A DNA stretch of 27,805 nt. It comes from a virus. The stretch lies in IMG/VR virus record IMGVR_UViG_3300017527_001189, positions 1 through 27,805 of that record, one strand, 5' to 3'. Position numbers and translations under genes: made by a program. The notes under the pieces were generated by a model. The model saw only the letters and a program-made list of their open reading frames with translations, was not told the DNA's origin and ran no database searches. Below, in pieces: positions 3,470-21,504 of this stretch; within the stretch, counting starts at the first letter, position 1; each line of letters begins with the position of its first letter.

Positions 3470-3636
3470 AGCGATTTAGAATTTTTCTTTTAGGGAACGA
3501 GACAAGTGATTTTACTTTTAGTGAAAAACCTATCTATCTCAGATGTAAGATGGCCTACCTGGGTCCCTAACCCTTTAGCCATCTACTGGCGGTTCTAAAT
3601 TGCTACCATCTTACATCTGAGTAGGTGGGTTTTTTA
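3470..3636 (+). ncRNA. Structured leader RNA with 29-bp terminator-like hairpin and crossing helices
   Basis: Bases 3524-3553 pair with 3606-3634 as a 16-bp perfect helix followed by 13 more pairs (two G-U) after a one-base bulge, ending in a T6 run as an intrinsic terminator would. The 52-base loop is also structured: 3564-3570 can pair with 3490-3496 (7 bp), 3578-3581 pairs with 3587-3590, and 3593-3604 pairs with upstream 3470-3481 (12 bp, one G-U). The last helix crosses the main hairpin, so the RNA is either a large pseudoknot or a switch between exclusive folds. A further 7-bp helix (3548-3554 with 3578-3584) competes with the end of the main stem. Function is unknown; attenuation of the initiator/helicase operon is an inference. 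Confidence 0.6.
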
Positions 3637-3667
3637 TTGTCTTTAATTTCAAAATAGGAGAATAAAA

Positions 3668-7431: not shown

Positions 7432-8064
7432 ATGGCAAAAGTAGCATATGAGACAATCGTTGGGCATGAGGATTTTGATTACAATGATTTTAAACAAGTA
7501 GTAAAGGACTTGAATGATTCAGGTTTATTAGAGAAAAAAGTCAATTTTGTTGGTAAGAAAGAAGTGGCTGTAAAGGCATTTCTGGATGCAGTGGAAAGGT
7601 TTTCTGATGAAGATGTGAGGAAAATGCCAGACGCAGCATTTGATATGAACAACAATTTCATTGATATCTTAGAAAACGCAGAGGCAGACGGTGAAGAAAG
7701 TGAAGGTGAAGAAGAGGGTGAAAGTGAGGGTGGAGATGGTAGTGCAGAAACCAATAGTGTAGAAGTTGAAAATAAACAAAAGAAAAAGAAGGAAGTTAAG
7801 AACAAAAAGGCCCAAAAGGAAAAGAAACCCTTTAAAAAGAAGGACAAATCAAAATATACCCGTTCTAACGCTCTTGTTGAATCATTACCTGAAAAAGAAG
7901 AAACAAAAACAAGAACCCAGATGGTAAATGATGCTAATCAACTTTATATTGAAAATGGTGGAAACGATAACTTGAAAGTTGCAAAGGCGCTTTTAAATTA
8001 TGTTATGCCGTCACTTCTTCTTTTAAGAATATTAACAAAAGACAAAGAAGAATATAAAAGATGA
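7432..8064 (+). CDS. Unknown protein with acidic then basic low-complexity linker
   Basis: 210-aa protein. The start has GAGAAAGGAGAAC upstream. The first 80 residues look like a small folded domain (HEDFDYNDFKQVVKDL, then an EVAVKAFLDAVERF helix). They are followed by about 30 residues rich in Glu, Gly and Ser, then about 35 rich in Lys, then a C-terminal helical part of about 55 residues. Such a charge-segregated linker is common in chromatin- or nucleic-acid-associated proteins, but no function can be assigned. It is the first gene after promoter-like copy 2 and overlaps the radical SAM gene by ATGA. Confidence 0.72.
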   Translation: MAKVAYETIVGHEDFDYNDFKQVVKDLNDSGLLEKKVNFVGKKEVAVKAFLDAVERFSDEDVRKMPDAAFDMNNNFIDILENAEADGEESEGEEEGESEGGDGSAETNSVEVENKQKKKKEVKNKKAQKEKKPFKKKDKSKYTRSNALVESLPEKEETKTRTQMVNDANQLYIENGGNDNLKVAKALLNYVMPSLLLLRILTKDKEEYKR

Positions 8065-8987
8065 AACCTTATCAAGGAATAGAGCATCAATGGTTAAATG
8101 ATGGATATAAAATATGGATTTGCAACAATATTTTATATGCGTCTATTATTTTTACTTGGAAAGTAAATGAAGTCATTTCTTTAATAAAAAATCAAAAAAG
8201 AAAGGCAATTGTTGGTGGCCCAGGAGCTATTTTAATGAGTTCTCACTTTGATAATATCGCAGAAGTGAGAACTCATTTAGATTTTATCGAACCTGTTACA
8301 CTACATAATCCCTTTGCGACTTTTACAACAAGAGGCTGTGTTAATAATTGTAAATTTTGTGCTGTTCCAAAAATAGAAGGAAAGTTCAAAGAAATATCCA
8401 ATTTTATTCCAAGACCTATTATTTGTGATAACAATTTTTTAGTATCAAGTAAAAAACATTTTAATAAAGTAATTGATAGCTTAAAACAAATGCCATATGT
8501 TGATTTTAATCAAGGATTAGAGGCAAAATATTTTACATCAGCTAAAGCTGATAGAATCGCTGAATTAAAAAACGTAAAAATCAGATTTGCATTTGATGTC
8601 ATAGAAGATGAAAAATTTATTATTGATGCGATTAATCTTGCAAAGAAAAAGGGATTTAAAAAAATTAGTTGTTATGTCCTTATTGGTTTCAATGACACTC
8701 CGTCAGATGCTTTGTACCGAGCAAAACTTCTTAGAAAGTTAAATATCTATGTTTATTGCATGAGATATCAACCATTGGATTCTCTTCAAAAAGATTCATA
8801 TATTTCTCCTAATTGGACAGATTATGAATTGAAAAGAGTTAAAAATTATTGGAAATGGCCACTCAATATTCCATTTGAAGAATACGAAACAAGAAAAGAC
8901 ACGTCAAATTTAGGATTTGGTTTAATAGACAGAAGAGGAATTAAAATAAGAAAGGAATTATACAAGGAGGAAATTAATGAAAATTAA
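8061..8987 (+). CDS. Radical SAM superfamily protein
   Basis: 308-aa protein with the radical SAM cluster motif CX3CX2C at Cys93, Cys97 and Cys100 (RGCVNNCKFC), preceded by a glycine-rich VGGPGA at about 51-56. Downstream strands FNQGLEAKYF, FAFDVIEDEKF and CYVLIGFNDTPSDAL fit a partial TIM barrel. The family uses a 4Fe-4S cluster and S-adenosylmethionine to generate a radical; the substrate here is unknown. It resembles uncharacterised radical SAM proteins in other phages. It is ATGA-coupled to the gene before it and overlaps the sliding clamp start by 11 bases. That position may mean nucleotide, tRNA or DNA modification, but this is not shown. Confidence 0.82.
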   Translation: MKPYQGIEHQWLNDGYKIWICNNILYASIIFTWKVNEVISLIKNQKRKAIVGGPGAILMSSHFDNIAEVRTHLDFIEPVTLHNPFATFTTRGCVNNCKFCAVPKIEGKFKEISNFIPRPIICDNNFLVSSKKHFNKVIDSLKQMPYVDFNQGLEAKYFTSAKADRIAELKNVKIRFAFDVIEDEKFIIDAINLAKKKGFKKISCYVLIGFNDTPSDALYRAKLLRKLNIYVYCMRYQPLDSLQKDSYISPNWTDYELKRVKNYWKWPLNIPFEEYETRKDTSNLGFGLIDRRGIKIRKELYKEEINEN

Positions 8988-9996
8988 AAAAGAAGAAATG
9001 CTGGATATTATGAAAAAAGTTTATGATAGTATTATCAGTAATGCATCAAATATAAGTGATAATACATCAGGACTAATTATATTTAATAATAAAACAATAA
9101 CTGGTTTTAATGAAGAGATAGCTGTAAATTATCCTTTTAAAACTGACCTAAAATGTGCTGTAAGGCTAACCGAATTATATAAACTACTACAGAAAGTTAA
9201 AGATGACTCTATTACCCTTTTAATAGAAGGCAATGAGTTGATTTTAGAAGCTAAAAATATTGATGCTGGTTTCCCACTTATTAAAGATTATACTGTACCA
9301 GATATTAATAACAAGATTGATGATTGGGAAAACTTGCCTGCCGGGTTTATCGATGGAATACAATTCTGCTCATTTTCTGTCTCAACAGACATTTCTGATG
9401 GTATCTTAGTTGCTCTTGAAATAAAGAATGATCATATAAGAACGACAGATAATTATCGTTTAACAGACTACTATATGGAAAGTAAAATCAAGTCTCCATT
9501 CCTTTTACACCAAAAATTCATTAAACCTATTATCGCCCATAATCCAATTAAAGTTTCTCAAGATGAATCATGGCTATATTTTTGTGATGAAAAAGATGGG
9601 ATTCTTAGTGTAAGGAAATTGGCTGAAAGTTACCCAGAAATAGATGAGTTTTTTAATATTAAAAAAATAGAAAATATTACATTCTCATCTAAATTAGAAG
9701 GAATATTAGATAGAGTTAGGACCCTTGCATTAGATGAAAATAACAATGAAAATGTTACTATTACAATTAACAATGATGAGATTATTTGTGAATGCCAAGG
9801 GAAATATGGATGGGTTGTTGAAACGATAAAGAATCAAACAAAACATAAAATAAAAAAGGAACTTAAATTTATTGCTGGTATTCAACATTTAACTCAAATT
9901 TTAGATAAAACAAAAACAGCAATTATTGGTGAGAATAGGTTGTTATTCGAACATGAAAACTTCAAACATGTTATCGTTACTACCCCATCAGAATAA
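8977..9996 (+). CDS. dnaN: DNA polymerase III beta-type sliding clamp
   Basis: 339-aa protein with the layout of the three-domain DnaN clamp: a first domain with LIEGNELILEAKN, a second-domain signature RTTDNYRLTDYYM near 145-160 (cellular clamps have ATDGHRLA), the clamp-like AESYPEIDEFF (cellular SFPDY), and a beta-rich C-terminal domain. Cellular clamps are about 365 residues, so it is slightly short. It would encircle DNA and tether the DnaE-type polymerase, loaded by the clamp loader at 17558. The start has CAAGGAGG seven bases upstream and overlaps the previous gene. Divergence is high; the call rests on fold pattern and on polymerase and loader genes in the same window. Confidence 0.78.
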   Translation: MKIKKEEMLDIMKKVYDSIISNASNISDNTSGLIIFNNKTITGFNEEIAVNYPFKTDLKCAVRLTELYKLLQKVKDDSITLLIEGNELILEAKNIDAGFPLIKDYTVPDINNKIDDWENLPAGFIDGIQFCSFSVSTDISDGILVALEIKNDHIRTTDNYRLTDYYMESKIKSPFLLHQKFIKPIIAHNPIKVSQDESWLYFCDEKDGILSVRKLAESYPEIDEFFNIKKIENITFSSKLEGILDRVRTLALDENNNENVTITINNDEIICECQGKYGWVVETIKNQTKHKIKKELKFIAGIQHLTQILDKTKTAIIGENRLLFEHENFKHVIVTTPSE

Positions 9997-10009
9997 TAAA
10001 TAATAAGCT

Positions 10010-10036
10010 ATTTTTAAAAACAGTATATACTACTAT
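10010..10036 (+). promoter_or_regulatory. Promoter-like AT element (copy 3, degenerate -10)
   Basis: T5 (10011-10015), A5 (10016-10020), CAGTATA, then overlapping TATACT (10026-10031) and TACTAT (10031-10036) in place of TATAAT. It lies in the gap between the sliding clamp and the ParB-like gene. Confidence 0.5.
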
Positions 10037-10045
10037 TAAAAAATA

Positions 10046-10099
10046 GAGAACATCGATTCTCGACTATGCCATGGCTGTCTGATAAGGCGTTAATTAACG
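10046..10099 (+). promoter_or_regulatory. Palindrome cluster upstream of ParB-like gene (possible operators)
   Basis: Three inverted repeats follow the promoter-like element: GAGAA/TTCTC around CATCGA (10046-10061), GCCATGGC (10068-10075) flanked by GAC and GTC, and a perfect 12-bp palindrome CGTTAATTAACG (10088-10099). They lie in the leader of a gene encoding a predicted DNA-binding protein, so autoregulation is plausible but only inferred. Confidence 0.4.
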
Positions 10100-10115
10100 G
10101 TGAAAGAAGGAAAGA

Positions 10116-11378
10116 ATGGATATTAAAAGTGGATTTGGTTTAGTTGGACAATCACAAAAAATTAACTATAAGAAGCTCAAAAAGCCCAGAAAACTTAAAA
10201 GGCTTAAAAAGTATAAAGGGAAATTAAATTATAAAGAGGTTATAAATGAAAGTGAAAAATTATTCTCAAGGTTAGAAGAATTAAATGTCCCGACAAAAAT
10301 TGAAGCAATAAATAAATTGAGATCGATTCTTCACAAACATAGCCCTTTTTCGGAAGAACCTGTTGATTTTGTTCAATGGGTACCAATAAACAAAATAGAG
10401 GCGAATGATTATAACCCTAATATTGTTGCCCCACCAGAAATGAAATTGCTCGAACGCTCTATAAAGGAAGATGGTTATACACAACCAATTGTAGCATGGT
10501 ATAGAAACGATAATTATGAAATTATTGACGGGTTTCATAGACACCGTGTTGGCAGAGAATGCAAAATTATCACCGAGAAAGTTAAAGGGTATTTACCATT
10601 AACAATTATCAACACTAACGGCCAAGAGAGTAAAGGTAACCGTATTGCGTCAACAATACGGCATAACAGAGCAAGAGGTAAACATACAATAATGGGGATG
10701 TCAGATATAGTTCTTGAATTAAAAAATAGAAATTGGACCAATGAAAGAATAGCAAAAAATTTAGGCATGGATCAAGATGAAATATTAAGATTATGCCAAA
10801 TTACAGGCTTAACAAAGTTATTTGCAGATCAAGGATTTTCTAAATCTTGGGATATTGAAGGGGATATTGATGAACATGATTTCGAAGAACTTTCTGATGA
10901 TGTAGAGACATATGGAGAAGAAGTAACTAATGTAAGAACTGTAAACACAAACGACAATACCAGAATATTCCATACTTGGGATAAATGGGAGTGCGCTAAA
11001 GCAGGTTTATATAAAACATCAAAAGAAGGCATGACAAAAGAAGAGTGTGAACAAGCATACTGCAATTTTTTATCTGATTTAGATAGATTTGCCGAAGCCC
11101 TTGAACGCGTTATAACAGAATGGAAATTCTCTTGTGAACAGTATCTTACGAATAGTGCAATGAATAGAATTGCTTGGTTAGGGCAAGCCTCTATGTGTTA
11201 TGCGACAGGTATTCCTGCTGCCTTTAGAAGTGGCTTTTATTTATTATCAGAAGAACAACAAATAAAAGCTAATGAAAAGGCACTTATTTATTTAAATAAG
11301 TGGCTTGAAAAAAATAACCGTAAAAAAGTTACAATGGAAGAAGCAGAATCTTTTAGTAGACAATCAGATATTTATTAA
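10116..11378 (+). CDS. ibrB: ParB/sulfiredoxin-fold protein, IbrB-like, with extra C-terminal domain
   Basis: 420-aa protein. A basic N-terminus is followed at about 88-145 by a ParB-like domain with VPINKIEANDYNPN, the SIKEDGYTQPIVAW strand-helix and the GFHRHR box (139-144). The conserved STIRHNRARGKH comes next, then a helical HTH-like part (WTNERIAKNLGMDQDEILRL). From about 285 a second domain begins (TWDKWECAKAGLY, later RIAWLGQASMCYATGIPAAF) that I have seen in phage proteins but cannot name. ParB-like proteins of this type pair with PAPS-reductase-like proteins, as in IbrB/IbrA, reported to activate prophage genes in E. coli. The partner gene lies 190 bases downstream. A regulatory or DNA-modifying role is possible. 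Confidence 0.75.
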   Translation: MDIKSGFGLVGQSQKINYKKLKKPRKLKRLKKYKGKLNYKEVINESEKLFSRLEELNVPTKIEAINKLRSILHKHSPFSEEPVDFVQWVPINKIEANDYNPNIVAPPEMKLLERSIKEDGYTQPIVAWYRNDNYEIIDGFHRHRVGRECKIITEKVKGYLPLTIINTNGQESKGNRIASTIRHNRARGKHTIMGMSDIVLELKNRNWTNERIAKNLGMDQDEILRLCQITGLTKLFADQGFSKSWDIEGDIDEHDFEELSDDVETYGEEVTNVRTVNTNDNTRIFHTWDKWECAKAGLYKTSKEGMTKEECEQAYCNFLSDLDRFAEALERVITEWKFSCEQYLTNSAMNRIAWLGQASMCYATGIPAAFRSGFYLLSEEQQIKANEKALIYLNKWLEKNNRKKVTMEEAESFSRQSDIY

Positions 11379-11392
11379 AAAGTAGAGGAACT

Positions 11393-11578
11393 ATGAAAAA
11401 AATCATAGAAATCACATTTTTGAAAAATTCAATATCCAATCAGATCAATCATATTATAAACAACGAATTTAGCAAATTAGATATTGATGAAATTGTTGAA
11501 GTTAAAAATAGAATCAATCAATCTATATGTAACAAAATTGAAAAAATGGCAGATAGGGCCTTAAAAAATGGCCATTAA
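11393..11578 (+). CDS. Small helical protein between the IbrB-like and IbrA-like genes
   Basis: 61-aa protein with no family I recognise. A GAGG lies upstream and the end overlaps the start of the PAPS-reductase-like gene by 11 bases, so coupled translation is likely. It is mainly helical, with alternating Ile/Asn-rich and charged segments (EIVEVKNRINQSICNKIEKM). Its position inside the conserved gene pair suggests an accessory or antitoxin-like partner, but there is no direct evidence. Confidence 0.6.
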   Translation: MKKIIEITFLKNSISNQINHIINNEFSKLDIDEIVEVKNRINQSICNKIEKMADRALKNGH

Positions 11579-12782
11579 AAGATATAGAAAAATAAATGTT
11601 TTAACAGCGGCAAGAGATCGGATTAAGATAATATTTGATAATTTTGAACGCATATATTGCGCTTTTTCAGGTGGGAAAGATAGTAGTGTAATGTTTCACC
11701 TTATTATGGATGAGGCTATAAAAAGAGATAGAAAAGTTGGCGTAATGTTAATAGATTTTGAAGCGCAATATAGTGAAACAATAAAACATGCCCGCGAGAT
11801 GTTTGCCATATATAAGAATAACATAGATAGACATTGGATATGTGTCCCTATGCTTTTAAGAAATGCTGTTACTAATTTCGAACCAAGATGGATTGCTTGG
11901 GATCCTTCAAAAAAAGATATTTGGGTTAGAGATAAGCCAATAGAGGCAAAAACAGAAAAAGATTATCCCTTTTTTATTGCGGAAATGGAATTTGAAGAGT
12001 TTATAATCTTATTCGCTGAATGGTATAGCCGAGGACAACGAACAGCTGGATTTGTTGGGATTAGAGCAGACGAAAGCCTTCATAGATATTGTGCAATAGC
12101 AACTTGGGAAAAAATTGGTAAAACTTTCAATGGGTATAGATGGACAACAAAAATAGCTAAAAACTGTTATAATATCTATCCTATTTATGATTGGAAAACA
12201 GAAGACATATGGAGATACCATTCAAAATATCCAGATAAAATACATAATGAAATATATGATAAAATGCAAATGGCAGGAGTTAAAATAAGTCAACAAAGAC
12301 TTTGTCAACCATATGGCGATGATCAAAGAAGAGGATTATGGTTATATCATATCCTTGAACCACAAACATGGTTTAAATTAATTGCAAGAGTGAATGGGGC
12401 AAATTCTGGCGCTTTATATATAAAAGAAACTGGTAATATGACAGGTTATAATAAAGTTACTAAACCGGATAATCATACATGGAAAAGTTTTTGTAATATG
12501 TTACTTCAAACTATGCCAAAAAAAACAAGAGACCATTATATAATTAGATTCAAAAAATTTATTTATGGGTGGAGTAGAAGAGGCTATTCTACTATCCCAG
12601 AAGAGGTACCATTGGAATTAGAAAGTAAATGCTGGGCTCCATCATGGAGAAGACTATGTAGAGTTTTATTAAGAAATGATTATTGGTGTAAAGGGTTAGG
12701 GATGGTTCAACCTAAAAGCGAAGCATATGGAAGATATCTTGAAATCAAAAGAAAAAAGAAATTAGATGACAAAATTAAATAA
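11568..12782 (+). CDS. ibrA: PAPS-reductase-like PP-loop protein, IbrA-like (DUF3440 type)
   Basis: 404-aa protein with the PP-loop SGGKDS at about 34-39, followed by the helix SSVMFHLIMDEAIKR and a strand VMLIDFEAQY. This is the N-type ATP pyrophosphatase fold of PAPS reductase and DndC. Later features match the IbrA/DUF3440 group: GIRADESLHRY, IYPIYDWKTEDIWRY, LCQPYGDDQRRGLW and the C-terminal KCWAPSWRRLCRVLLRNDY. It is unlikely to reduce sulfate, because assimilation genes are absent. It more likely adenylates an unknown substrate together with the ParB-like partner. A role in nucleic-acid modification or transcription activation is inferred from relatives. Translation appears coupled to the small gene before it. 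Confidence 0.8.
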   Translation: MAIKRYRKINVLTAARDRIKIIFDNFERIYCAFSGGKDSSVMFHLIMDEAIKRDRKVGVMLIDFEAQYSETIKHAREMFAIYKNNIDRHWICVPMLLRNAVTNFEPRWIAWDPSKKDIWVRDKPIEAKTEKDYPFFIAEMEFEEFIILFAEWYSRGQRTAGFVGIRADESLHRYCAIATWEKIGKTFNGYRWTTKIAKNCYNIYPIYDWKTEDIWRYHSKYPDKIHNEIYDKMQMAGVKISQQRLCQPYGDDQRRGLWLYHILEPQTWFKLIARVNGANSGALYIKETGNMTGYNKVTKPDNHTWKSFCNMLLQTMPKKTRDHYIIRFKKFIYGWSRRGYSTIPEEVPLELESKCWAPSWRRLCRVLLRNDYWCKGLGMVQPKSEAYGRYLEIKRKKKLDDKIK

Positions 12783-13005
12783 CATTATTCAAGAAATCAA
12801 AGATGAAATTGATTTTTCAAATGAAAAATTCAAACCTGGATTCAACTCAAATCAAGAATGGTTAGGTACATTGAGAGAAGAATACAAGGAACTTGAACAA
12901 GAAATATTTAACAGCAAAGAAGTTTGGGAAGGCAACTCAAAAATGAAAAAAGAAGCAATTCAAGTTGCAGCAATGGCAATCAAAGGAATTCTATCACTAT
13001 GTTAG
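12766..13005 (+). CDS. Small MazG-like protein
   Basis: 79-aa all-helical protein with the acidic EEYKELEQE helix and the EAIQVAAMAIKGI helix typical of small phage relatives of the MazG/dUTPase-like nucleotide pyrophosphohydrolase fold. Such proteins may hydrolyse nucleoside triphosphates, but at this length it may be a structural relative without full activity. It starts inside the end of the PAPS-reductase-like gene and ends four bases into the polymerase gene, so all three are probably translated from one message. Confidence 0.65.
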   Translation: MTKLNNIIQEIKDEIDFSNEKFKPGFNSNQEWLGTLREEYKELEQEIFNSKEVWEGNSKMKKEAIQVAAMAIKGILSLC

Positions 13006-16000
13006 ACTTTGCACATCTCCATGTACATTCAGAATATTCGTTATTAGATGGATTTGGTACAGCTGAAAATTATGCTAAAAAAGCAAAAGAAATCGGGTAT
13101 AAATATCTCGCTTTGACAAATCATGGCAATGTCGATGGCTGCATTGATTTTCAAAAACAATGTCTAAAGCATGGAATAAAACCCATCCTTGGTTGTGAAT
13201 TTTACATTGTCCCTGACGCAACCAAAAGAGAAAACAAGGACAGAAAGCATATTACTATCCTTGCCAAAAACCAAGAAGGATGGCAGAATATTCTTCAAAT
13301 GCTCACGTTTGCTAACCTTGAAGGATTCTACTACAAACCACGTATAGATTATAAATGTCTATTAAATCATCTTAATGGTCTGGTTATCATGTCTGCCTGT
13401 ACCGCAACATTTATAACCGACTATGATTTCCTGGTAACATTAACCAATGCAATGCCAGATATAAATGACTTCTATTTAGAAGTCATGCCACACAACTTCA
13501 AAGAGCAGAAGGAATTGAATAAATATATCATATCAATTGCAGATGAATTAAAATGGACAATAGTAGCCACCAATGACTGTCACTATATAGAAAAGAATGA
13601 TTGGAAGGCGCAAGAAGTCTTGCTCGCCATCCAAACAAAGGCAAAATGGAATGACAAAGAACGATTTAAATTTCAAATGAAAGGACTCCACCTAAAAACT
13701 CCCGCCGAAATGTTTCAAGCCTTCCTGAAACAAAATTCCCTTACAAAAAATGAAATACTAAGAGCAATGAACAACACCATTGAAATAGCGGAGAAATGTG
13801 CGGGATTTAGAATTAAAAGACAGAAAATCCATCTCCCAGAAGTCCCCGAATATGCTGGCCAGGATAAGGCGGAAATTCTTTGGTCACTCTGCCAAAAAGG
13901 CATCAAAAATATAGATAAAAACGAATGGAAGAAAAATAAACTTCAATACCTCGCAAGACTTAAAGAGGAATTTGATCTTATTACAAGTAAAAAGTTTGAA
14001 GGCTATTTTCTTATCGTTTACGAATTAATAAATTGGTGTAAAGAGAACGATATAATGGTGGGACCTGGAAGAGGATCGGTTGGTGGATCGTTAATCTCTT
14101 ATCTTTTAGACATCACTTGTGTTGACCCATTGGAGTACGACCTTTTGTTTTCACGGTTCATTTCAGAAGAACGGATTGACTATCCAGATATAGATATTGA
14201 TTTTGAGGATCGAAAAAGGGATTTAGTCAAACAGCATCTCGAAGATCTCTATGGCAAGGGTAACATTGCAAGCGTCTCCACATTTCTTACAATGAAAGGG
14301 CGCGGGGCAATCCGTGATGTCGCAAGAGTCTTCGACATACCATATAAACAAGTCGATGAGTTTGCAAAAACAATTGACGACGCAACCGGTAAAGATAAAA
14401 CAGGGGAGATTCAACAAGCAATTAACCAAACTAATGAAGGGAGGCAATTTTACAATAAATATCCTGAGGTAGTTAACTTTGCTATGAAACTTGAAGGGCA
14501 GATTAAAGGGGTTGGTCAACATGCAGCGGCATCGATTATATCAGCCGACCTAATTGCAGATGGAACAAGAGCGCATCTTATAAAGCGGAAAGGCAATATA
14601 GCTATAAACTGGGCGATGGAGGACTCAGAATATGTTGGTCTAATAAAATTAGACATACTGGGTCTAAGCACATTGAGCATCTTAAGTGAGACAAAGAAAC
14701 TTATTAAACAAAATCACAATGCTGATCTAACTTACAGAGATATTATTCCAAATGACAAAACTGTATTGAATGAATTTGCATTAGGACATAATGAGGGAGT
14801 CTTTCAATTTAGCACCTACGGTCTAACTGATCTTTGTAAGAAAATGAAGATAAAAACTTTCGAGGATCTGGTTGTTTCCAATTCGTTGTATAGACCAGGC
14901 ACACTACGAAGTGGTATGGTTGATGAATATCTAAAGAGAAAAAATGGCAGAAAGTTTAAAGGTTTGCATCCGAAAATTGATGGAATAACAAAAGATACAT
15001 TTGGTATAATTATATTCCAAGAACAAGTGATGAACCTCGCCTACCAATTAGCTGGAATGCCGTGGAAAGACGCCGATAAAATTAGAAAGGTTATTGGTAA
15101 ATCAAAGGGCACAAAAGAACTCCATAAGTTCAAAGAACAATTTGTCAATGGTTGTGTTGAAAATAAGACGTTGAATAAAAAAGTCGCCTCTAAACTATGG
15201 AATGACTTAGAGAGCTTTGGTGGATATGGCTTCAACCGTAGTCATTCTGTTGAATATTCATTAATTGGTTACTGGACGCAGTGGTTTAAAACCTATTACC
15301 CAACAGAATTTATTTGTGCATCATTAACATTTGGAAGCGAAGGGAATAAGGAATCGCTTATAAAAGAAGCTTTAAGATTGGGATTGAAATTAGTGCTACC
15401 TAAAGTTGGTATTTCCGATTCACATAAATGGGTTGCAAAAGATAACTATCTTTACATCCCATTTATAGAAGTTAAGGGGTTTGGTGATAAGACATCAAAA
15501 ACTGCATCGGTATTTAAAAGAAAAGCTCCTGCGAAAAGACAAGGATTCTTTGGTATAAAAGATAAAGCCAAAGAACAATCAAATAATAAAAAAACAAAGA
15601 TGGAGAAGATTTTAGATGACATAGGTGCATTTGATAATAATACTCAAATACCAGATACGGCAAAAGATTATTTTTCATTTCAAATCAGTCAAAATCCAAA
15701 ATTAATCTATCCAGAATTATTTAAAATTATGAACCCAAGAAAATATAAAGTCCAAATAAACGATATTATAAAAGGCCAAATAAATAAAATACCAGTCATA
15801 CAAAAGAAACGGTTCCGAAATACCGATATTATTCATTGCGATAAATGTGAGCTAAGAAATGAATGCACAAAACCAGTGCCTTCCTCAATGGGTATCTACA
15901 ATATTATGATATGCGCGGAGGCCCCTGGAAAGGATGAAGACAAACAAGGCATGGGGTTCGTGGGCCGTGCAGGTAATGATATTTTATGGCCAGAGATAGA

Positions 16001-17546
16001 GAGATATGGATTGAAAAGAAAACATTTCCATATAACGAATGTGGTTAAATGTTTTACTGATCCAAATACTCAAATTTATACATCAAAAGGGTTGAAAATT
16101 ATATCTGAAATAGAAATAAATGATAGAGTTCTTACTCATAAAGGTAGATTTCGTAAAGTATCATGGGTTCAAAAAGATGATTATATTCCCAGAGGTAAAA
16201 AATTAATTGTTATCAAATATAAACATTTAGGCGGCGGCAGGAAAGTTAAAACTACAATAGTAACTCCAGAACATCCATTTTTTATCGACGATGATTGGAA
16301 AGAGGCTTATAAAATCAAAAAAGGAGACAAATTAAAAATTTTGGCAAAACGTTGTCTTCAATGTAATTCTAAAATCCCATTTGACAGCATAAGAGATTTT
16401 TGTTCTAAAAATTGCGCTACTATTTATTCTAATAAAAATAGAGAATGGAACAATGAAAGCAAAAACAAAGTATCAAAAAATATGAAAGGGTTATATAAAA
16501 CTGGGATTTTAGATGCCTCAAAAATTACCATCAACGCGAATAAGAAAACCAGACAACTTGTTAAAGATGGAGAACAAATTCTTTTAAGCAAAAATAGAAA
16601 TTTTATTCACCCCTTTAAAGGTAAAACAAAATATAATTGTGAATCAATAATGAGAGGTTCAAAAAAGACTTATAGCGCGAATAAAGAAAATGGACATCTT
16701 TCAAAATTACCATTATTAGGGAAGCAAGCTTTAGAAAATTATTACAAAAAACCTGGCAACAAAAGAAAACCTATTTCCAAAAACAGAAATACAAAAATAG
16801 AGCTTGTGATGGCCTGGGCATTAAAGAAAAGAAAAATAAAATTTATCCATGGTCAAAATTTGTTCCATTATTATCCTGATTTTATTATTGATGGATATAA
16901 TTTAATAGTTGAATGTGATGGTTTATTTTGGCACTCCAGTGACAAAGCTATAAAAAGAGACAGAGAAAAAGATGATTTTTTAGAGTCTAAAGGGTACACG
17001 GTTTTAAGATTTACTGATAACCAAATTAATAAAGATGTTTTTTCTTGTATAGACGAAATAGAAAGGATCATGAGCAACCATAATGGGGAATATGAGTTTA
17101 TGGAAACCGAAATTGTATCTGTTAGGCAAATTACAACATATGGGAAAAGGAAATTATACAATTTTGCTGTTTGGGGAGATAATTCTTATATTGCTAATGG
17201 TCTTGTTTCTCACAATTGTTGGCCATCAAAAACAAGAACACCAAATATCAAACACATTAAAGCGTGCTATCCATGGTTGCAGGAAGAGTTAGAAAGGATC
17301 GATTGTAGATTAATTCTTGCATTTGGCAATACGGCGATCAAATGTTTTACAGAAATGACTGGTGGTATCACTAAACTATCAGGTAAGACAGAGTGGAACG
17401 AAAAGGCAAAGGCGTGGTTATGTTGGTGTGTTCATCCTGCCGCCGTATTACATAACAAAGAACAAAATGAAAGGTTATTTGAAGAAGGTATTAGAAATTT
17501 TATACAAACAATTAAAAGATTTGGAATTGATGAAATCTTATACTAA
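12999..17546 (+). CDS. dnaE: DNA polymerase III alpha (DnaE) fused to uracil-DNA glycosylase-like domain, interrupted by an intein
   Basis: 1515-aa precursor, 1126 aa after splicing. ATG 12999 is chosen because the PHP domain begins at once (HLHVHSEYSLLDG); upstream codons belong to the previous gene. PHP motifs LTNHGNVDG and TNDCHY follow. The polymerase core has GPGRGSVGGS, the catalytic PDIDIDFE (396-403, Asp397 and Asp399) and a third Asp near 552 (KLDILGL). After the fingers and a helix-hairpin-helix part, residues about 945 onward form a family-4-type uracil-DNA glycosylase-like domain: CDKC (947-950), AEAPGKDEDKQG with FVGRAG (about 973-992), NVVKC, KAC 16 residues on, and HPA (1479). 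It would replicate phage DNA with the clamp and loader here. No 3'-5' exonuclease domain is evident. Uracil scanning by the fused domain is inference. Confidence 0.9.
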   Translation: MLDFAHLHVHSEYSLLDGFGTAENYAKKAKEIGYKYLALTNHGNVDGCIDFQKQCLKHGIKPILGCEFYIVPDATKRENKDRKHITILAKNQEGWQNILQMLTFANLEGFYYKPRIDYKCLLNHLNGLVIMSACTATFITDYDFLVTLTNAMPDINDFYLEVMPHNFKEQKELNKYIISIADELKWTIVATNDCHYIEKNDWKAQEVLLAIQTKAKWNDKERFKFQMKGLHLKTPAEMFQAFLKQNSLTKNEILRAMNNTIEIAEKCAGFRIKRQKIHLPEVPEYAGQDKAEILWSLCQKGIKNIDKNEWKKNKLQYLARLKEEFDLITSKKFEGYFLIVYELINWCKENDIMVGPGRGSVGGSLISYLLDITCVDPLEYDLLFSRFISEERIDYPDIDIDFEDRKRDLVKQHLEDLYGKGNIASVSTFLTMKGRGAIRDVARVFDIPYKQVDEFAKTIDDATGKDKTGEIQQAINQTNEGRQFYNKYPEVVNFAMKLEGQIKGVGQHAAASIISADLIADGTRAHLIKRKGNIAINWAMEDSEYVGLIKLDILGLSTLSILSETKKLIKQNHNADLTYRDIIPNDKTVLNEFALGHNEGVFQFSTYGLTDLCKKMKIKTFEDLVVSNSLYRPGTLRSGMVDEYLKRKNGRKFKGLHPKIDGITKDTFGIIIFQEQVMNLAYQLAGMPWKDADKIRKVIGKSKGTKELHKFKEQFVNGCVENKTLNKKVASKLWNDLESFGGYGFNRSHSVEYSLIGYWTQWFKTYYPTEFICASLTFGSEGNKESLIKEALRLGLKLVLPKVGISDSHKWVAKDNYLYIPFIEVKGFGDKTSKTASVFKRKAPAKRQGFFGIKDKAKEQSNNKKTKMEKILDDIGAFDNNTQIPDTAKDYFSFQISQNPKLIYPELFKIMNPRKYKVQINDIIKGQINKIPVIQKKRFRNTDIIHCDKCELRNECTKPVPSSMGIYNIMICAEAPGKDEDKQGMGFVGRAGNDILWPEIERYGLKRKHFHITNVVKCFTDPNTQIYTSKGLKIISEIEINDRVLTHKGRFRKVSWVQKDDYIPRGKKLIVIKYKHLGGGRKVKTTIVTPEHPFFIDDDWKEAYKIKKGDKLKILAKRCLQCNSKIPFDSIRDFCSKNCATIYSNKNREWNNESKNKVSKNMKGLYKTGILDASKITINANKKTRQLVKDGEQILLSKNRNFIHPFKGKTKYNCESIMRGSKKTYSANKENGHLSKLPLLGKQALENYYKKPGNKRKPISKNRNTKIELVMAWALKKRKIKFIHGQNLFHYYPDFIIDGYNLIVECDGLFWHSSDKAIKRDREKDDFLESKGYTVLRFTDNQINKDVFSCIDEIERIMSNHNGEYEFMETEIVSVRQITTYGKRKLYNFAVWGDNSYIANGLVSHNCWPSKTRTPNIKHIKACYPWLQEELERIDCRLILAFGNTAIKCFTEMTGGITKLSGKTEWNEKAKAWLCWCVHPAAVLHNKEQNERLFEEGIRNFIQTIKRFGIDEILY
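16050..17216 (+). mobile_element. Intein with PD-(D/E)XK-type homing endonuclease
   Basis: 389-residue intein (precursor residues 1018-1406). Splicing blocks are complete: Cys1 at CFTDPNTQIYTSKG, block B TPEHPFF, block F NFAVWGDNSYIANG and terminal His-Asn followed by Cys +1. Between them lie a zinc-finger-like CLQC...CSKNC, a NUMOD-like segment (NREWNNESKNKVSKNMKG) and an endonuclease domain with ELVMAWALKKRKIKF, YYPDFIIDGYNLIVECDG, WH and TVLRF. This matches the Vsr/DUF559-like PD-(D/E)XK group rather than LAGLIDADG. It should excise itself and, at DNA level, home into unoccupied alleles. Codon use is AT-rich like the host gene, so no recent transfer is obvious. Confidence 0.9.
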
Positions 17547-17557
17547 AGGAGGTAGGG

Positions 17558-18496
17558 ATGGAAGAAAACACGGGGTTGCATCTAAAATATAGACCTAAGA
17601 AATTCAGCGAAGTTATTGGCAATAAATCAACGGTAATTTCTCTTCAATCCGTTATAACGAGAAAAGATAATGAGGTTAGATCCTTTATCTTTAAAGGTCC
17701 ATCTGGTACTGGCAAAACAACACTGGCAAGGATTGTAGGTAGTGAATTAAATTGCCATGAAAGAGACTTCAAAGAATTTAACGCGGCAAACACTCGTGGT
17801 ATCGACACAGTTCGAGAAATATCTGCAACATCTTCCCTCGCACCAATGAGTGGCAAGATAAAGATTTACCTTCTCGATGAGGCTCATTCATTAACGAAAG
17901 ACGCCCAAAATGCCTTATTAAAACTATTAGAGGACACCCCAAGGCATGTTAGGTTTATCCTTTGTACGACAGAACCTGAGAAACTTCTGAAAACTATCAA
18001 AACAAGATGTATGGCTTTCACCACCGCTAATTTGAGAAGAGCAGAAATTATTCAGTTATTGAAATATGTATTAGATAAGGAAGAAGTCGATTTACCCGAC
18101 AAGCATTTAAAAGAGATTGCCAGAGTATCAGAAGGTAGCCCTCGGCAAGCACTTGTTATATTAGATTCAATTATTGATATTACTGATGATGAAGAGGCCT
18201 TTGATGCAATCGCAGCAGCAGGGGTAGGTGAGGCAACAGTTCTTGAAATTTGTCGATTACTGATTGACCCCAAAACCAAAGGCCATGCTAAGTGGCAGGC
18301 GATGTCAAAACTAATCAGATCAGTTGATGCAGAACCAGAAAGCATTAGAAGAGCAATACTTGGTTATTTAGGTTCTGCGTTATTAAAGAATGGTAATGAC
18401 CGAATTTCTGATCTGATTTCTTTATTTGAGGAAAATCTTTTCTCCTCAGGCAACTCGGGTTTATACAATGCTCTGTACTTAGGATGCCAACTATGA
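17558..18496 (+). CDS. dnaX: Clamp loader ATPase (DnaX/RFC-type)
   Basis: 312-aa AAA+ ATPase that would load the sliding clamp onto primed DNA. The opening LKYRPKKFSEVIGN is the DnaX signature. Walker A is GPSGTGKT (47-54), Walker B LLDEAH (105-110), sensor 1 lies in the CTTEPEKLL region, and an arginine-finger-like KTRC follows. The zinc-binding cysteines of cellular DnaX are reduced to a single NCHERD. Length matches phage or archaeal small loader subunits, and no separate delta subunit is visible. AAAGGAGG precedes the start, 11 bases after the polymerase stop. Its stop codon touches the first base of a 37-bp direct repeat carrying a promoter-like element. Confidence 0.88.
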   Translation: MEENTGLHLKYRPKKFSEVIGNKSTVISLQSVITRKDNEVRSFIFKGPSGTGKTTLARIVGSELNCHERDFKEFNAANTRGIDTVREISATSSLAPMSGKIKIYLLDEAHSLTKDAQNALLKLLEDTPRHVRFILCTTEPEKLLKTIKTRCMAFTTANLRRAEIIQLLKYVLDKEEVDLPDKHLKEIARVSEGSPRQALVILDSIIDITDDEEAFDAIAAAGVGEATVLEICRLLIDPKTKGHAKWQAMSKLIRSVDAEPESIRRAILGYLGSALLKNGNDRISDLISLFEENLFSSGNSGLYNALYLGCQL

Positions 18497-18534
18497 AAAT
18501 AAAATCTAAGGTTTTTAAAAAAGTATATTATAAT
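18496..18534 (+). promoter_or_regulatory. Promoter-like AT element (copy 4), first arm of a 37-bp direct repeat
   Basis: T5 at 18512-18516, A6, G and TATAAT at 18529-18534. Bases 18496-18532 are repeated exactly at 18669-18705, so the gap holds two promoter-like copies that bracket the 18-bp array. Confidence 0.6.
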
Positions 18535-18548
18535 AAAAGTAAGAATTA

Positions 18549-18667
18549 AGAATTGCCATAAACAGGGAGAAAACCAAAAGCCCAGAGCGAGCCACATTCT
18601 TCGAGAAAACCATAGGTGAGGAGCGAGCCATATTATTATGAGAAAACCATTATTATTGAGCGAGTCA
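18549..18667 (+). repeat. 18-bp-phased array of GAGAAAACCA / GAGCGAGCCA (first array)
   Basis: Six 10-bp boxes alternate: GAGAAAACCA (18567, 18603, 18640) and GAGCGAGCCA (18585, 18621; 18658 has GAGCGAGTCA), separated by variable 8-base spacers (one of 9). A degenerate AGAATTGCCA lies one period upstream at 18549. The boxes share GAG..A.CCA, so the basic period is 18 bp and the composite period 36 bp. The array is intergenic, between two promoter-like copies. It could be iterons of an origin, operators for a repeat-binding protein, or an RNA-level signal in the transcript from 18534. Confidence 0.7.
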
Positions 18668-18668
18668 A

Positions 18669-18709
18669 AAAATAAAATCTAAGGTTTTTAAAAAAGTATA
18701 TTATATAAT
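18669..18709 (+). promoter_or_regulatory. Promoter-like AT element (copy 5), second arm of the 37-bp direct repeat
   Basis: Identical to copy 4 through 18705, then TATAAT at 18704-18709, 19 bases after the T5 start instead of 17. It is immediately followed by AAAAAGGAGG for the next gene, leaving a very short leader. Confidence 0.6.
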
Positions 18710-18733
18710 AAGAAAAAGGAGGTGAATAAATTA

Positions 18734-19198
18734 ATGGACTTTGAAAAAGATTGCCAGATTGATAAATACAATTTAGATATCGAATGGGAAAGGCAACCTC
18801 ATTTATTTGGTCAATATGCAAAAGCTAATGCCGAAGCCGTAGCGGAAAGAGATCGAGCAAAACAAAATAAAGATGTTACATCCGCAGAGTTAAGGTTGGA
18901 AATTTTAAATGGCTATAACGAAAAGGGTCTAAAAAAGCCAACTGAAAACGCTATTGATGCAGAGATTATAACTTCAAGCCCACACAAAAGAGTATCAGAA
19001 GAATTGATTGATGCCAATGAGAAAGTTGCCTTGACCGATGCTGCTAAATGGGCAATACAGCAAAAGAGAGATGCACTGGAAAACATGGTCAAACTCCACC
19101 TTGCCGGTTACTTCTCTGACCCCAAAATCCCAAATGAGGCAAAGGAACAAAGTGATCAAAAAACAAGGAGACGGTTGAAGAAATCGTTGAAGAAATAA
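18734..19198 (+). CDS. Unknown helical protein, possible UvsY-like recombination mediator
   Basis: 154-aa protein. The ATG at 18734 is preferred over the GTG at 18722, which overlaps the AAGGAGG. The N-terminus (FEKDCQIDKYNLDIEWERQP) has the D..ID..NL..E pattern I associate with phage UvsY-type recombination mediators. A long helical, charged stretch (AEAVAERDRAKQNKDVTSAE) and LENMVKLHLAGYF follow, and the C-terminus is very basic. UvsY helps load the RecA homologue onto SSB-coated DNA, and genes for a gp32-like SSB and a RecA-like protein lie directly downstream, which supports the idea. Similarity is by pattern only, so the name is tentative. Confidence 0.6.
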   Translation: MDFEKDCQIDKYNLDIEWERQPHLFGQYAKANAEAVAERDRAKQNKDVTSAELRLEILNGYNEKGLKKPTENAIDAEIITSSPHKRVSEELIDANEKVALTDAAKWAIQQKRDALENMVKLHLAGYFSDPKIPNEAKEQSDQKTRRRLKKSLKK

Positions 19199-19423
19199 AT
19201 GGATTTACTAACAAAAATATTCATATTTATTTTAATACTCTTAGCAGGATACATAGTTATAAGGATCTTTGCATACGGGGCTGCTAAGTCAGTCATTGAT
19301 GCAATGCAACAAACCTTACAATCTAAAGAAAGGAGAATGCAAAATGGCATCGAAGAAAAGACAACAAATGAGAGACAAGTTACGGGGCAGAACAGAACAG
19401 AGCGAAAAGACGAGAGAAAGTAG
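19199..19423 (+). CDS. Small single-span membrane protein
   Basis: 74-aa protein starting at the base after the previous stop, without a clear ribosome-binding site, so it would depend on re-initiation. Residues about 5-27 (LTKIFIFILILLAGYIVIRI) form one transmembrane helix, followed by a charged cytoplasmic-like tail. The last 80 bases overlap the start of the SSB gene in another frame, which is more overlap than elsewhere in the window. It may be real or a chance reading frame; the strong hydrophobic N-terminus argues for real. Function is unknown. Confidence 0.5.
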   Translation: MDLLTKIFIFILILLAGYIVIRIFAYGAAKSVIDAMQQTLQSKERRMQNGIEEKTTNERQVTGQNRTERKDERK

Positions 19424-20387
19424 CGGCAGGTTCGGCAGCTTTTTTAAATCGAACTTGCCAGAAGGGGCACAATTCTGGACAGCAGGCAAGGGTAATCACA
19501 TCATTGATATCATTCCATATGTAGCAGGGCCAAATGATCCAGATCCGGCAACAAATGAAGGTGATCCTACCTATGTTCTTGATCTTTTTGTTCACGGCAA
19601 TGTCGGAGTAAATGATGATGCGGTAGTATGTCCGGCAAGAACCTATAAAAAACCATGCCCAATTTGCGAACACCAAAAGCAATTACGACAAGAAGATGAT
19701 TTTGATGAAGACTTAGTAAAGAGCCTTAATCCAAAAAGGCGATGTATTTATAACATTGTTTGTTACGATACAGATAAGGAAGAGGATAAAGGTATTCAAA
19801 TTTGGCCGGTAGCACATTGGTTTTTCGAACGTCATCTTACCTCCCTTGCTCGCAATTCAAGAACTGGAGAACTCGAAACATTTGCTGACCCCGATGATGG
19901 AAAAAGCATTGAGTTTGAGCGTCAAGGCACTGGCATGACCAATACGCAATATATTGGTCATAAATTCAGTGATCGGCCCGATCCAATTCCAGATGAATAT
20001 TTAGATCAAGCCTTTTGTCTTGATGAGTTAATTGAACTCAAAAGCTATGACGAGATCTACAAATTATATTGGCAGGAAGATGCTCCTGAAGCAGACGATC
20101 ATGAAGAAGAGGAACAGGAAAAGGAAGAGGAAGAGAAACCTAAAAGGTCTGCTCGTCGTTCTTCTAAACCCAAAAAGGAGCCAAAAGTTAAGGAAGGGGA
20201 GTGCCCTTATGGTGGAGAGTTTGGTGTCGATCTTGGCGAACTAAACGAATGCGGTGAATGCAGTCTTTTTGAAGAATGTTCAAAACGGATGGAAGAACTA
20301 CAGGCTGACGGACAATCTGACGATGATAAAGATGGGAGTGAAAAAGAAGAGGAAAAACAAACTCCAAGAAGGCGACGGAGAAAGTAG
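19344..20387 (+). CDS. gp32-like single-stranded DNA-binding protein
   Basis: 347-aa protein; ATG 19344 has AGGAG eight bases upstream, while an upstream in-frame ATG lacks one. The basic N-terminus (SKKRQQMRDKLRGR) resembles the cooperativity region of T4 gp32-like SSBs. The core shows VLDLFVHGNVG, then CPARTYKKPCPICEH (Cys96, Cys105, Cys108), the likely structural zinc site, and WPVAHWFFERHL. The C-terminal part is unusual: an acidic run, a basic linker, a second cysteine cluster (ECPYGGEFGVDLGELNECGE), another acidic run and a very basic last six residues, whereas most SSBs end in an acidic tail. It would coat ssDNA for the replisome and the RecA-like protein. Confidence 0.8.
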   Translation: MASKKRQQMRDKLRGRTEQSEKTRESSGRFGSFFKSNLPEGAQFWTAGKGNHIIDIIPYVAGPNDPDPATNEGDPTYVLDLFVHGNVGVNDDAVVCPARTYKKPCPICEHQKQLRQEDDFDEDLVKSLNPKRRCIYNIVCYDTDKEEDKGIQIWPVAHWFFERHLTSLARNSRTGELETFADPDDGKSIEFERQGTGMTNTQYIGHKFSDRPDPIPDEYLDQAFCLDELIELKSYDEIYKLYWQEDAPEADDHEEEEQEKEEEEKPKRSARRSSKPKKEPKVKEGECPYGGEFGVDLGELNECGECSLFEECSKRMEELQADGQSDDDKDGSEKEEEKQTPRRRRRK

Positions 20388-20462
20388 CCAAGCCGGTTGA
20401 GAAAACCACACTCTATGAGCGAGCCACATACGTCGAGAAAACCAAGAGCATTGAGCGAGCCA
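20381..20462 (+). repeat. 18-bp-phased array of GAGAAAACCA / GAGCGAGCCA (second array)
   Basis: Four perfect boxes with exact 8-base spacers: GAGAAAACCA at 20399 and 20435, GAGCGAGCCA at 20417 and 20453. A degenerate AAAGTAGCCA at 20381, in phase, overlaps the SSB stop codon. The array ends 16 bases before the RecA gene start and leaves little room for a promoter. It is the same element as at 18549-18667, about 1.8 kb away. Confidence 0.7.
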
Positions 20463-20478: not shown

Positions 20479-21504
20479 ATGAGAAAACTCAAAAGAAAAT
20501 CGGCTGCAGAACAAGTAAGAGAGGTTGCTAAAAAACCAATTAAGAAAGACCCTCCCATTAGATTTGATAAGGTTATCTCCACCGGCTCCACAGTCTTAGA
20601 CCTTTGTATATCTGGTGGGAGGGTGCGAGGCGGTGGAATTCCCGGTGGCATATTACTCGAAATCTTTGGCCCTTCAGCCTCTGGGAAAACTGCAGTATTG
20701 GCAGAGATATGTTCCTCAGCTCAATCAAAAGGCGGACAGGTAAAATTCCAAGATGGCGAGGCAAGGCTTGATAAAGAGTATGCAAGGATCTATGGCTTAT
20801 CATTAGTGCAATCAGGTGAGAACTACTCCAGACCAAAGACAGTTAATGAAATGTTTGATGAGATAGAGGAATGGGAACCCGAAAATCCTAACGCCATTAA
20901 TGTAATTGGATCGGACTCACTCGCTGCTCTCTCCACTGAACTTGAAATGGGCGCGGAAGATAAAATGGGAATGAAGAGGGCTAAAGACTTCAGTGCCCGC
21001 ACCCGCAAGTGTTGCAAACTAATAGCGGAAAAAAAGTGGGTCATTGCCTGCACCAACCAATTGCGGGAAGGCCAATATGGTGAGACCACTCCTGGTGGCA
21101 AAGCCGTGCCTTACTACTCCGCCTTAAGGATGAGAATTAGAGAAGTTAAAAAGGTAGAGAAAGAAAAAGTTGTGTTTGATGTAAAGCAAAAGAAAACAAA
21201 AGGAATAGAGTCAGAATGTTACATTAAAAAATCAGACATTGATGATCCTTACAGACTGGCGAAACCGATCTTCATTATCTTCGGCTACGGTATTGATGAC
21301 ATTAGAGGTAATTTACAATGGCTGAAAACAAACACCAAAGCAACAAAATATCATGCGATTGACAAGGAGTATCAAAGTCTTGATGCCGCTGTTGGTTACA
21401 TTGAGAGGATGAAGTATGAAGATCAATTAAAAGAAGAAATCATCGATTTGTGGGAAAAAATTGAGGAAGAGTTTAAAATCGATAGGAAACCAAAAGTAAG
21501 ATGA
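20479..21504 (+). CDS. recA: RecA/UvsX-type recombinase
   Basis: 341-aa RecA-fold protein. Opening residues ISTGSTVLDLCISGG and GGGIPGGILLEIFG match the RecA start. Walker A is GPSASGKT (64-71), Walker B lies near 147-158 (INVIGSDSLAAL), loop regions are around MGMKRAKDFSART, and TNQLRE and TTPGGKAVPYYSALRMR correspond to RecA's TNQIR and GGxALKFYASxR. It would form filaments on ssDNA for strand exchange and recombination-primed replication, helped by the SSB and perhaps the protein at 18734. Its leader is occupied by the second 18-bp array, and the gene is ATGA-coupled to the exonuclease gene. The name recA is used for the family; it may be nearer phage UvsX. Confidence 0.88.
   Translation: MRKLKRKSAAEQVREVAKKPIKKDPPIRFDKVISTGSTVLDLCISGGRVRGGGIPGGILLEIFGPSASGKTAVLAEICSSAQSKGGQVKFQDGEARLDKEYARIYGLSLVQSGENYSRPKTVNEMFDEIEEWEPENPNAINVIGSDSLAALSTELEMGAEDKMGMKRAKDFSARTRKCCKLIAEKKWVIACTNQLREGQYGETTPGGKAVPYYSALRMRIREVKKVEKEKVVFDVKQKKTKGIESECYIKKSDIDDPYRLAKPIFIIFGYGIDDIRGNLQWLKTNTKATKYHAIDKEYQSLDAAVGYIERMKYEDQLKEEIIDLWEKIEEEFKIDRKPKVR

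What the first reader, a model, noticed from the sequence alone, without database searches (positions are those of the whole stretch)
20381..20462. A second copy of the 18-bp-phased array fills the SSB-RecA gap
Four perfect boxes with exact 8-base spacers, and a fifth degenerate one overlapping the SSB stop, recur 1.8 kb from the first array directly before the RecA start. Two independent placements next to recombination genes argue for function. With almost no room for a promoter here, a role in the transcript (translation control, RNA processing) becomes more attractive than an origin. A shared regulator would tie SSB and RecA levels together.
Basis: partly seen in the sequence, partly recalled or inferred. 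Interest (0 to 1): 0.7.

Follow-up and report, generated by a model that had tools for sequence, protein, structure and literature searches.

The report
TIGR guide-RNA mini-array between phage genes
The repeated boxes between the phage's SSB and RecA genes are a short TIGR array, a recently described CRISPR-like store of paired 8-base guides, here carried by a phage fragment in which no gene for the matching Tas protein was found.

Summary
The explanation is a known but very recent one: both arrays in the window are dual-repeat TIGR arrays (Tandem Interspaced Guide RNA, Faure et al. 2025). Two 10-nt repeats alternate, edge GAGCGAGCCA and loop GAGAAAACCA, with 8-nt spacers of free sequence and a 36-nt unit. 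The "fifth degenerate box" over the SSB stop is the 5'-truncated edge repeat that opens a TIGR array. Over 100 IMG/VR stretches match the pattern, many with true arrays. Arrays co-occur with one protein family that matches TasR and TasH by sequence and fold. The reference TIGR phage (Salicola CGphi29) has repeats 1-2 nt different. A colinear relative of the window phage carries array-tasA-array-tasParB-array at the position of array 1; a close relative of that phage keeps one array without tasA. The window shows the same tas-less layout, plus an extra two-unit array in the SSB-RecA gap. No tas gene was found in the 35.4 kb known of this phage. Transcription, processing and guide use are inferred from the literature. 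No spacer target was found. The SSB/RecA co-regulation reading is not supported.

The parts
20381..20390 (+).
   Evidence: Ends in AGCCA, in 18-nt phase with the next box; matches the TIGR rule of a 5'-truncated edge repeat
20391..20398 (+). spacer A of tigRNA unit 1, AGCCGGTT
   Evidence: position between repeats
20399..20408 (+). loop repeat GAGAAAACCA
   Evidence: exact box
20409..20416 (+). spacer B of unit 1, CACTCTAT
20417..20426 (+). edge repeat GAGCGAGCCA
   Evidence: exact box
20427..20434 (+). spacer A of unit 2, CATACGTC
20435..20444 (+). loop repeat GAGAAAACCA
   Evidence: exact box
20445..20452 (+). spacer B of unit 2, AGAGCATT
20453..20462 (+). closing edge repeat GAGCGAGCCA of array 2
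   Evidence: exact box
18549..18667 (+). array 1: truncated edge 18549-18558, then three tigRNA units (spacers TAAACAGG/AAAGCCCA, CATTCTTC/TAGGTGAG, TATTATTAT/TTATTATT), last edge GAGCGAGTCA
   Evidence: same position as array-tasA-array-tasParB-array in G034
18496..18539 (+). AT-rich promoter-like element upstream of array 1 (copy 1 of a 45-bp direct repeat); likely drives array 1
   Evidence: 95.6% identical copy at 18669-18712; similar elements before other genes of the window; a similar element precedes the array in G034 and G002. Inferred, not a sigma-70 consensus hit
18669..18712 (+). copy 2 of the promoter-like element, after array 1; likely drives UvsY-SSB-array 2-RecA
   Evidence: inferred
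18734..19198 (+). UvsY-like recombination mediator
   Evidence: phrog_231 E 0.0012, phrog_2058
19344..20387 (+). gp32-like single-strand DNA-binding protein (SSB)
   Evidence: PF08804 E 2e-10
20479..21504 (+). RecA/UvsX-like recombinase
   Evidence: PF00154 E 1.9e-28, phrog_97
17558..18496 (+). clamp-loader ATPase upstream of array 1
   Evidence: PF13177 E 7e-25

Best explanation
Both arrays are dual-repeat TIGR arrays. Array 2 (20381-20462) would be transcribed within the UvsY-SSB-RecA message and array 1 from the promoter-like element just upstream; the RNA would then be cut in the middle of each edge repeat into 36-nt tigRNAs (two from array 2, three from array 1). Each tigRNA would load a Tas protein dimer whose two protomers grip the GAG...CCA repeats, and its two spacers would pair with opposite strands of a 16-bp DNA target, so that the complex binds (or, with a nuclease-bearing Tas, cuts) that site. 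Shown here: array anatomy, its match to a reference TIGR array, its genetic link to Tas proteins, and a colinear relative with tasA and tasParB at the site of array 1. Inferred from Faure et al. 2025: transcription, processing, guide function. Unknown: targets, and where this phage's Tas comes from, since none was found in the 35.4 kb known; it may lie on the unsequenced part or act in trans, or the locus may be a leftover of tas loss.
For: Alternating 10-nt repeats, 8-nt free spacers, 36-nt unit, CCA end on both repeats, and 5'-truncated edge repeat on both arrays fit the published definition. Salicola phage CGphi29, the SpTIGR/TasH reference of that paper, reads AAGCGAGCCA/AAGACAACCA with 8-nt spacers and opens with a truncated edge. 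In 32 of 60 array loci one protein family lies on the same strand, often within 50 nt; array-Tas association among the loci p=5e-9. From the protein side, 34 of 80 TasA loci have such arrays, all on the tasA strand, none on the opposite strand or in the reversed control. That family matches TasR 9mty (E 2.6e-45) and TasH 21kl (E 5.7e-37) by profile, and its AF2 model matches TasH/TasR first, then IS621. Colinear relative G034 has array-tasA-array-tasParB-array between clamp loader and UvsY; its close relative G002 has one array and no tas. Predicted RNA is unstructured (z 0.34), in line with the paper's remark that unprocessed TIGR arrays form no extended duplexes.
Against: No tas gene in the window or in the 7.6 kb that a 100% identical contig adds, even with an iterated HMM. 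Array 2 has only two units (5-15 is usual) and no terminator after it. No target signal above chance for tandem spacers. No expression data.
Confidence: 0.88

Rival explanations
1. Orphan remnant: the arrays are leftovers of a TIGR locus whose tasA and tasParB were deleted in this lineage, and they no longer do anything. (This shares the identity claim of the best explanation and differs only in present activity, so the two confidences overlap.)
For: No tas gene found in 35.4 kb of this phage. G002, 93-98.5% identical to G034 over the flanks, has the same locus without tasA/tasParB. L223 carries what looks like a one-unit remnant at the same site.
Against: Nine of ten full boxes in the window are exact and spacing is kept, with an extra array at a second site; neutral decay should have damaged boxes unless the loss is very recent. 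The contigs are incomplete, so tas may be elsewhere.
Confidence: 0.3
2. Binding sites for a regulator or antiterminator that coordinates SSB and RecA, acting on DNA or mRNA leader.
For: Position directly before the RecA start, in-phase spacing, second copy near UvsY.
Against: The same boxes sit next to tas genes in unrelated phages, in arrays of up to 61 boxes. Clamp-loader relatives mostly lack them, and L219, which keeps SSB-RecA, has no array in the SSB-RecA gap.
Confidence: 0.04
3. Replication origin iterons beside replication genes.
For: Direct repeats next to DNA polymerase, clamp loader and SSB; AT-rich DNA flanks array 1.
Against: Two distinct alternating boxes with 18-nt phase, always on the tasA strand in 34 loci; two sites in one phage; association with Tas rather than an initiator.
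Confidence: 0.02
4. Coding repeat: the array encodes a 12-residue protein repeat (EKTxxxERAxxx) whose reading frame ends in a TGA overlapping the RecA ATG.
For: 18-nt phase is a multiple of three and the frame through array 2 is open (sequence).
Against: Boxes are identical at synonymous sites while spacers are free; array 1 has a frame-breaking 9-nt spacer; long arrays elsewhere have stops in all forward frames, with 17/19/37-nt steps and boxes GAGTAA or GAGTGA that are stops in that frame.
Confidence: 0.02

Closest known systems
TIGR array of Salicola phage CGphi29 (SpTIGR, with TasH)
   Same: 10-nt edge and loop repeats ending in CCA, 8-nt spacers, 36-nt unit, truncated opening edge; repeats AAGCGAGCCA/AAGACAACCA against GAGCGAGCCA/GAGAAAACCA
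   Different: CGphi29 has a tas gene (TasH, HNH nuclease) directly upstream and a terminator after the array; the window has neither nearby
TasA-TasParB TIGR operons (Faure et al. 2025, fig. S14)
   Same: 10-nt repeats; relative G034 has array-tasA-array-tasParB-array at the same genomic place
   Different: Window and G002 keep arrays but lack tasA and tasParB at the locus; the window's own ParB_N gene (10116-11375) lies about 7 kb away beside a PAPS-reductase-like gene and is not in a tas operon
CRISPR arrays, including Cas-less mini-arrays in phages
   Same: repeat-spacer store of guides carried by a phage without its effector gene (analogy from general knowledge)
   Different: TIGR repeats and spacers are far shorter, two repeats alternate, and guides work in pairs on opposite strands
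IS110 bridge RNA and box C/D snoRNA
   Same: Tas proteins share the Nop/Transposase_20 fold
   Different: single two-loop RNA or snoRNA with K-turns, not tandem arrays

Membership tests
Dual-repeat TIGR array | two distinct alternating repeats of 8-12 nt | tested here: met
   GAGAAAACCA and GAGCGAGCCA alternate in both arrays
Dual-repeat TIGR array | spacers of about 9 nt (8 in SpTIGR), variable | tested here: met
   nine spacers of 8 nt plus one of 9 nt, all different
Dual-repeat TIGR array | both repeats end in box C (CCA) and share a matching box D at the start | tested here: met
   both start GAG and end CCA; published box D is UG in TasR arrays but may diverge if edge and loop covary
[quoted passage not shown]
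   18549-18558 ...TTGCCA and 20381-20390 ...AGCCA, in phase
[quoted passage not shown]
   array 1 ends in an altered edge without terminator, array 2 in a full edge running into RecA; the paper calls this feature typical, not obligatory
TIGR-Tas system | associated tas gene (Nop domain) next to the array | tested here: not met
   none in the window or G001; present at the same place in relative G034. So the arrays are filed as TIGR arrays; a complete TIGR-Tas system is not shown for this phage
TIGR-Tas system | transcribed and processed to 36-nt tigRNA | not testable with these tools
   needs small-RNA sequencing
TIGR-Tas system | spacers A and B direct DNA binding on opposite strands | tested here: inconclusive
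   no clear excess of tandem-spacer matches in 1.6 Mb of viral loci; array-2 unit targets give 6 and 1 IMG/VR hits
Tas protein (family found with the arrays in other phages) | sequence and fold match to TasR/TasH | tested here: met
   9mty E 2.6e-45, 21kl E 5.7e-37; Foldseek top hits TasH 9w04 and TasR 9mty
Replication origin iterons | direct repeats bound by a cognate initiator | not tested
   no initiator candidate was sought; anatomy and strand link to tasA argue against

The most novel reading that the evidence does not exclude
Guide-only TIGR arrays: this phage (and G002) keeps intact arrays without a tas gene and relies on Tas protein supplied in trans by a co-infecting phage, prophage or host, with array 2 placed in the SSB-RecA message so that guides are made exactly when recombination proteins are.
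Probability: 0.15. Interest if true: 0.75.

Novelty: new member of a known kind. Interest (0 to 1): 0.45.

Why it matters
TIGR-Tas is an RNA-guided DNA-targeting system described in 2025 whose natural role is unknown, and nuclease-free TasA is its most puzzling form. This locus adds arrays that sit in a phage replication-recombination cassette without a tas gene, and a natural comparison: G034 with array-tasA-array-tasParB-array and G002, 93-98.5% identical around the locus, with one array only. It also supplies the simple search key GAGNNANCCA-N8-GAGNNANCCA, which finds many of these arrays without knowing the protein.

Tried and rejected
Literature search for GAGCGAGCCA: 32 papers, the 20 listed are unrelated, apparently primers or other sequence. 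Rfam: nothing at E<=0.5. Coding-repeat reading: rejected by stops and frame-breaking steps elsewhere. Search for tas in the window, G001, G002, G039, G041, G043: none, also with an iterated HMM; the best sub-threshold window ORF (E 0.55) is the UvsY-like gene and was dismissed. Target search for 461 tandem-spacer pairs in 1.6 Mb of viral loci with four geometries and edge-spanning control pairs: no exact match at the permitted gaps 0-2 and no convincing excess in the predicted geometry (37 one-mismatch hits at gap 0 against 14-23 in the other geometries, within the 14-34 spread over all gaps). Exact predicted targets of the two array-2 units in IMG/VR: 6 and 1 hits, at or below chance by my rough estimate of collection size. 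No TasA record from sample 3300017613 among the best 80 relatives of G034's TasA. Structure of array 2 RNA: not more stable than shuffles.

Full report
Observation. The window is a 27.8-kb IMG/VR viral record. Between SSB (stop 20387) and RecA (start 20479) lie four exact 10-nt boxes at 20399, 20417, 20435 and 20453, each separated by 8 nt, and an in-phase partial box at 20381-20390 over the SSB stop. Two box types alternate: GAGAAAACCA and GAGCGAGCCA. Array 1, 18549-18667, has the same build with six boxes, a partial opening box and one 9-nt spacer. Dinucleotide-preserving shuffles never give such pairs.

The boxes are not special to this phage. Many carry long arrays, up to 61 boxes. GAGCGAGCCA is nearly constant; the partner box varies between phages but little within one (GAGAGAACCA, GAGAAACCCA, GAGAAAACCA and others). 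Of 522 steps of 18 nt, 477 alternate between the two box types; spacer positions show nearly even base use. Long arrays contain stops in all forward frames and steps of 17, 19 or 37 nt, so they are not coding repeats.

The partner protein. In 32 of 60 array loci one protein family, mostly 230-330 residues, lies on the same strand, usually with an array starting within 50 nt of one of its ends. It is PHROG 4285, with weak Transposase_20 matches. A profile of 29 members finds TIGR-TasR (9mty, E 2.6e-45) and TasH (21kl, E 5.7e-37) in the PDB, then IS110-type transposases. The AlphaFold2 model (pLDDT 89.5) has TasH and TasR as best fold matches. Array-bearing loci are enriched for this family (29 of 40 against 14 of 80, p=5e-9). 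Started from the protein instead, 34 of 80 TasA loci have GAG..A.CCA arrays, always on the tasA strand, with none on the other strand or in reversed sequence.

Comparison with the published system. Faure et al. 2025 (PMC12045711) define TIGR arrays as two alternating 8-12-nt repeats (edge, loop) with spacers of about 9 nt, repeats that end in CCA in the solved TasR system, a truncated edge at the 5' end, and processing in the middle of the edge repeat into 36-nt tigRNAs that pair with both strands of a DNA target. They also report tasA-tasParB operons with 10-nt repeats. Their reference phage, Salicola CGphi29, is among the few hits of a tblastn of a TasA from these loci against annotated phages (three records, two of them this phage), and its array reads AAGCGAGCCA / AAGACAACCA with 8-nt spacers. 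By analogy GAGCGAGCCA is the edge and the A-rich GAGAAAACCA the loop. Array 1 then holds three and array 2 two tigRNA units.

The genomic setting. No tas gene is found in the window or in G001, a 100% identical contig that extends it 7.6 kb leftwards. G034, a colinear relative (clamp loader 48% identical), has at the place of array 1 the series array-tasA-array-tasParB-array. G002, 93-98.5% identical to G034 over the flanks, has one four-unit array there and no tasA or tasParB. The window shows the G002 layout: promoter-like element, array, promoter-like element, UvsY. Other clamp-loader relatives have no array there, apart from an apparent one-unit remnant in L223; L219, whose RecA is 52% identical, has no array in its SSB-RecA gap. 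So the arrays are optional cargo of this cassette, not a conserved control element of SSB and RecA.

How it likely works. Array 1 would be read from the element at 18496-18539 and array 2 within the UvsY-SSB-RecA message; processing of array 2 would also separate the SSB and RecA parts of that message (inference). The tigRNAs would guide a Tas protein to 16-bp DNA sites. Which Tas is open: encoded on the missing part of the genome, supplied in trans, or lost. Intact boxes at two sites argue against a long-dead remnant.

Targets. The predicted geometry (one strand reads spacer B then the reverse complement of spacer A, gap 0-2) is my derivation from the published 3' overhangs and pairing rules. 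With it, 461 unit pairs gave no exact hit and no clear excess of one-mismatch hits in 1.6 Mb of viral loci. The array-2 targets gave 6 and 1 exact hits in IMG/VR, not above chance. Targets remain unknown, as in the original paper.

Verdict. A real, well-formed TIGR mini-array: a new member of a known kind, made more interesting by the lack of a tas gene and by its place inside a recombination operon.

Noticed in passing
window 12924-17546: The DNA polymerase III alpha-like ORF (1540 aa) carries a C-terminal part that looks like a family-4 uracil-DNA glycosylase, interrupted by an intein-like insert (CFTDPNTQIYTSKG...NGLVSHNC). Read by eye only.
   Followed up: no
window 10116-12782: A ParB_N-domain gene followed by a PAPS-reductase/DUF3440 gene, resembling IbrB/IbrA-type pairs; not the TasParB of TIGR operons.
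   Followed up: partly
window 3434, 7338, about 9997, 18507, 18680, about 22360: A recurrent promoter-like element (TTTTTAAAAAA-GTATATTATAATGG type) precedes genes or gaps across the window; probably a phage-specific promoter class.
   Followed up: partly
window about 3500-3640: A noncoding stretch holds a long inverted repeat (CTCAGATGTAAGATGG ... CCATCTTACATCTGAG) near a T run; possible terminator or small RNA.
   Followed up: no
L208 (G034) 7827-10126 and L164 (G002) 1030-1165: Two phages, 93-98.5% identical over the flanks, differ by presence or absence of tasA and tasParB between TIGR arrays, a natural comparison for TIGR function.
   Followed up: yes
L147 and G020 (Acidobacteriaceae bacterium KBS 96), L138 (Aenigmatarchaeota MAG), L131/L139/L140/L148 (Dehalococcoidia MAGs): The same boxes form arrays in bacterial and archaeal assemblies; KBS 96, apparently an isolate, has both an array and a Tas match.
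   Followed up: partly
L223 7880-10190: A relative with a one-unit TIGR-like remnant (GAGAAAACCATACTCAGAGAGCG) before the promoter element, with an ORF that looks like a homing endonuclease in the same gap, at the same cassette position.
   Followed up: no
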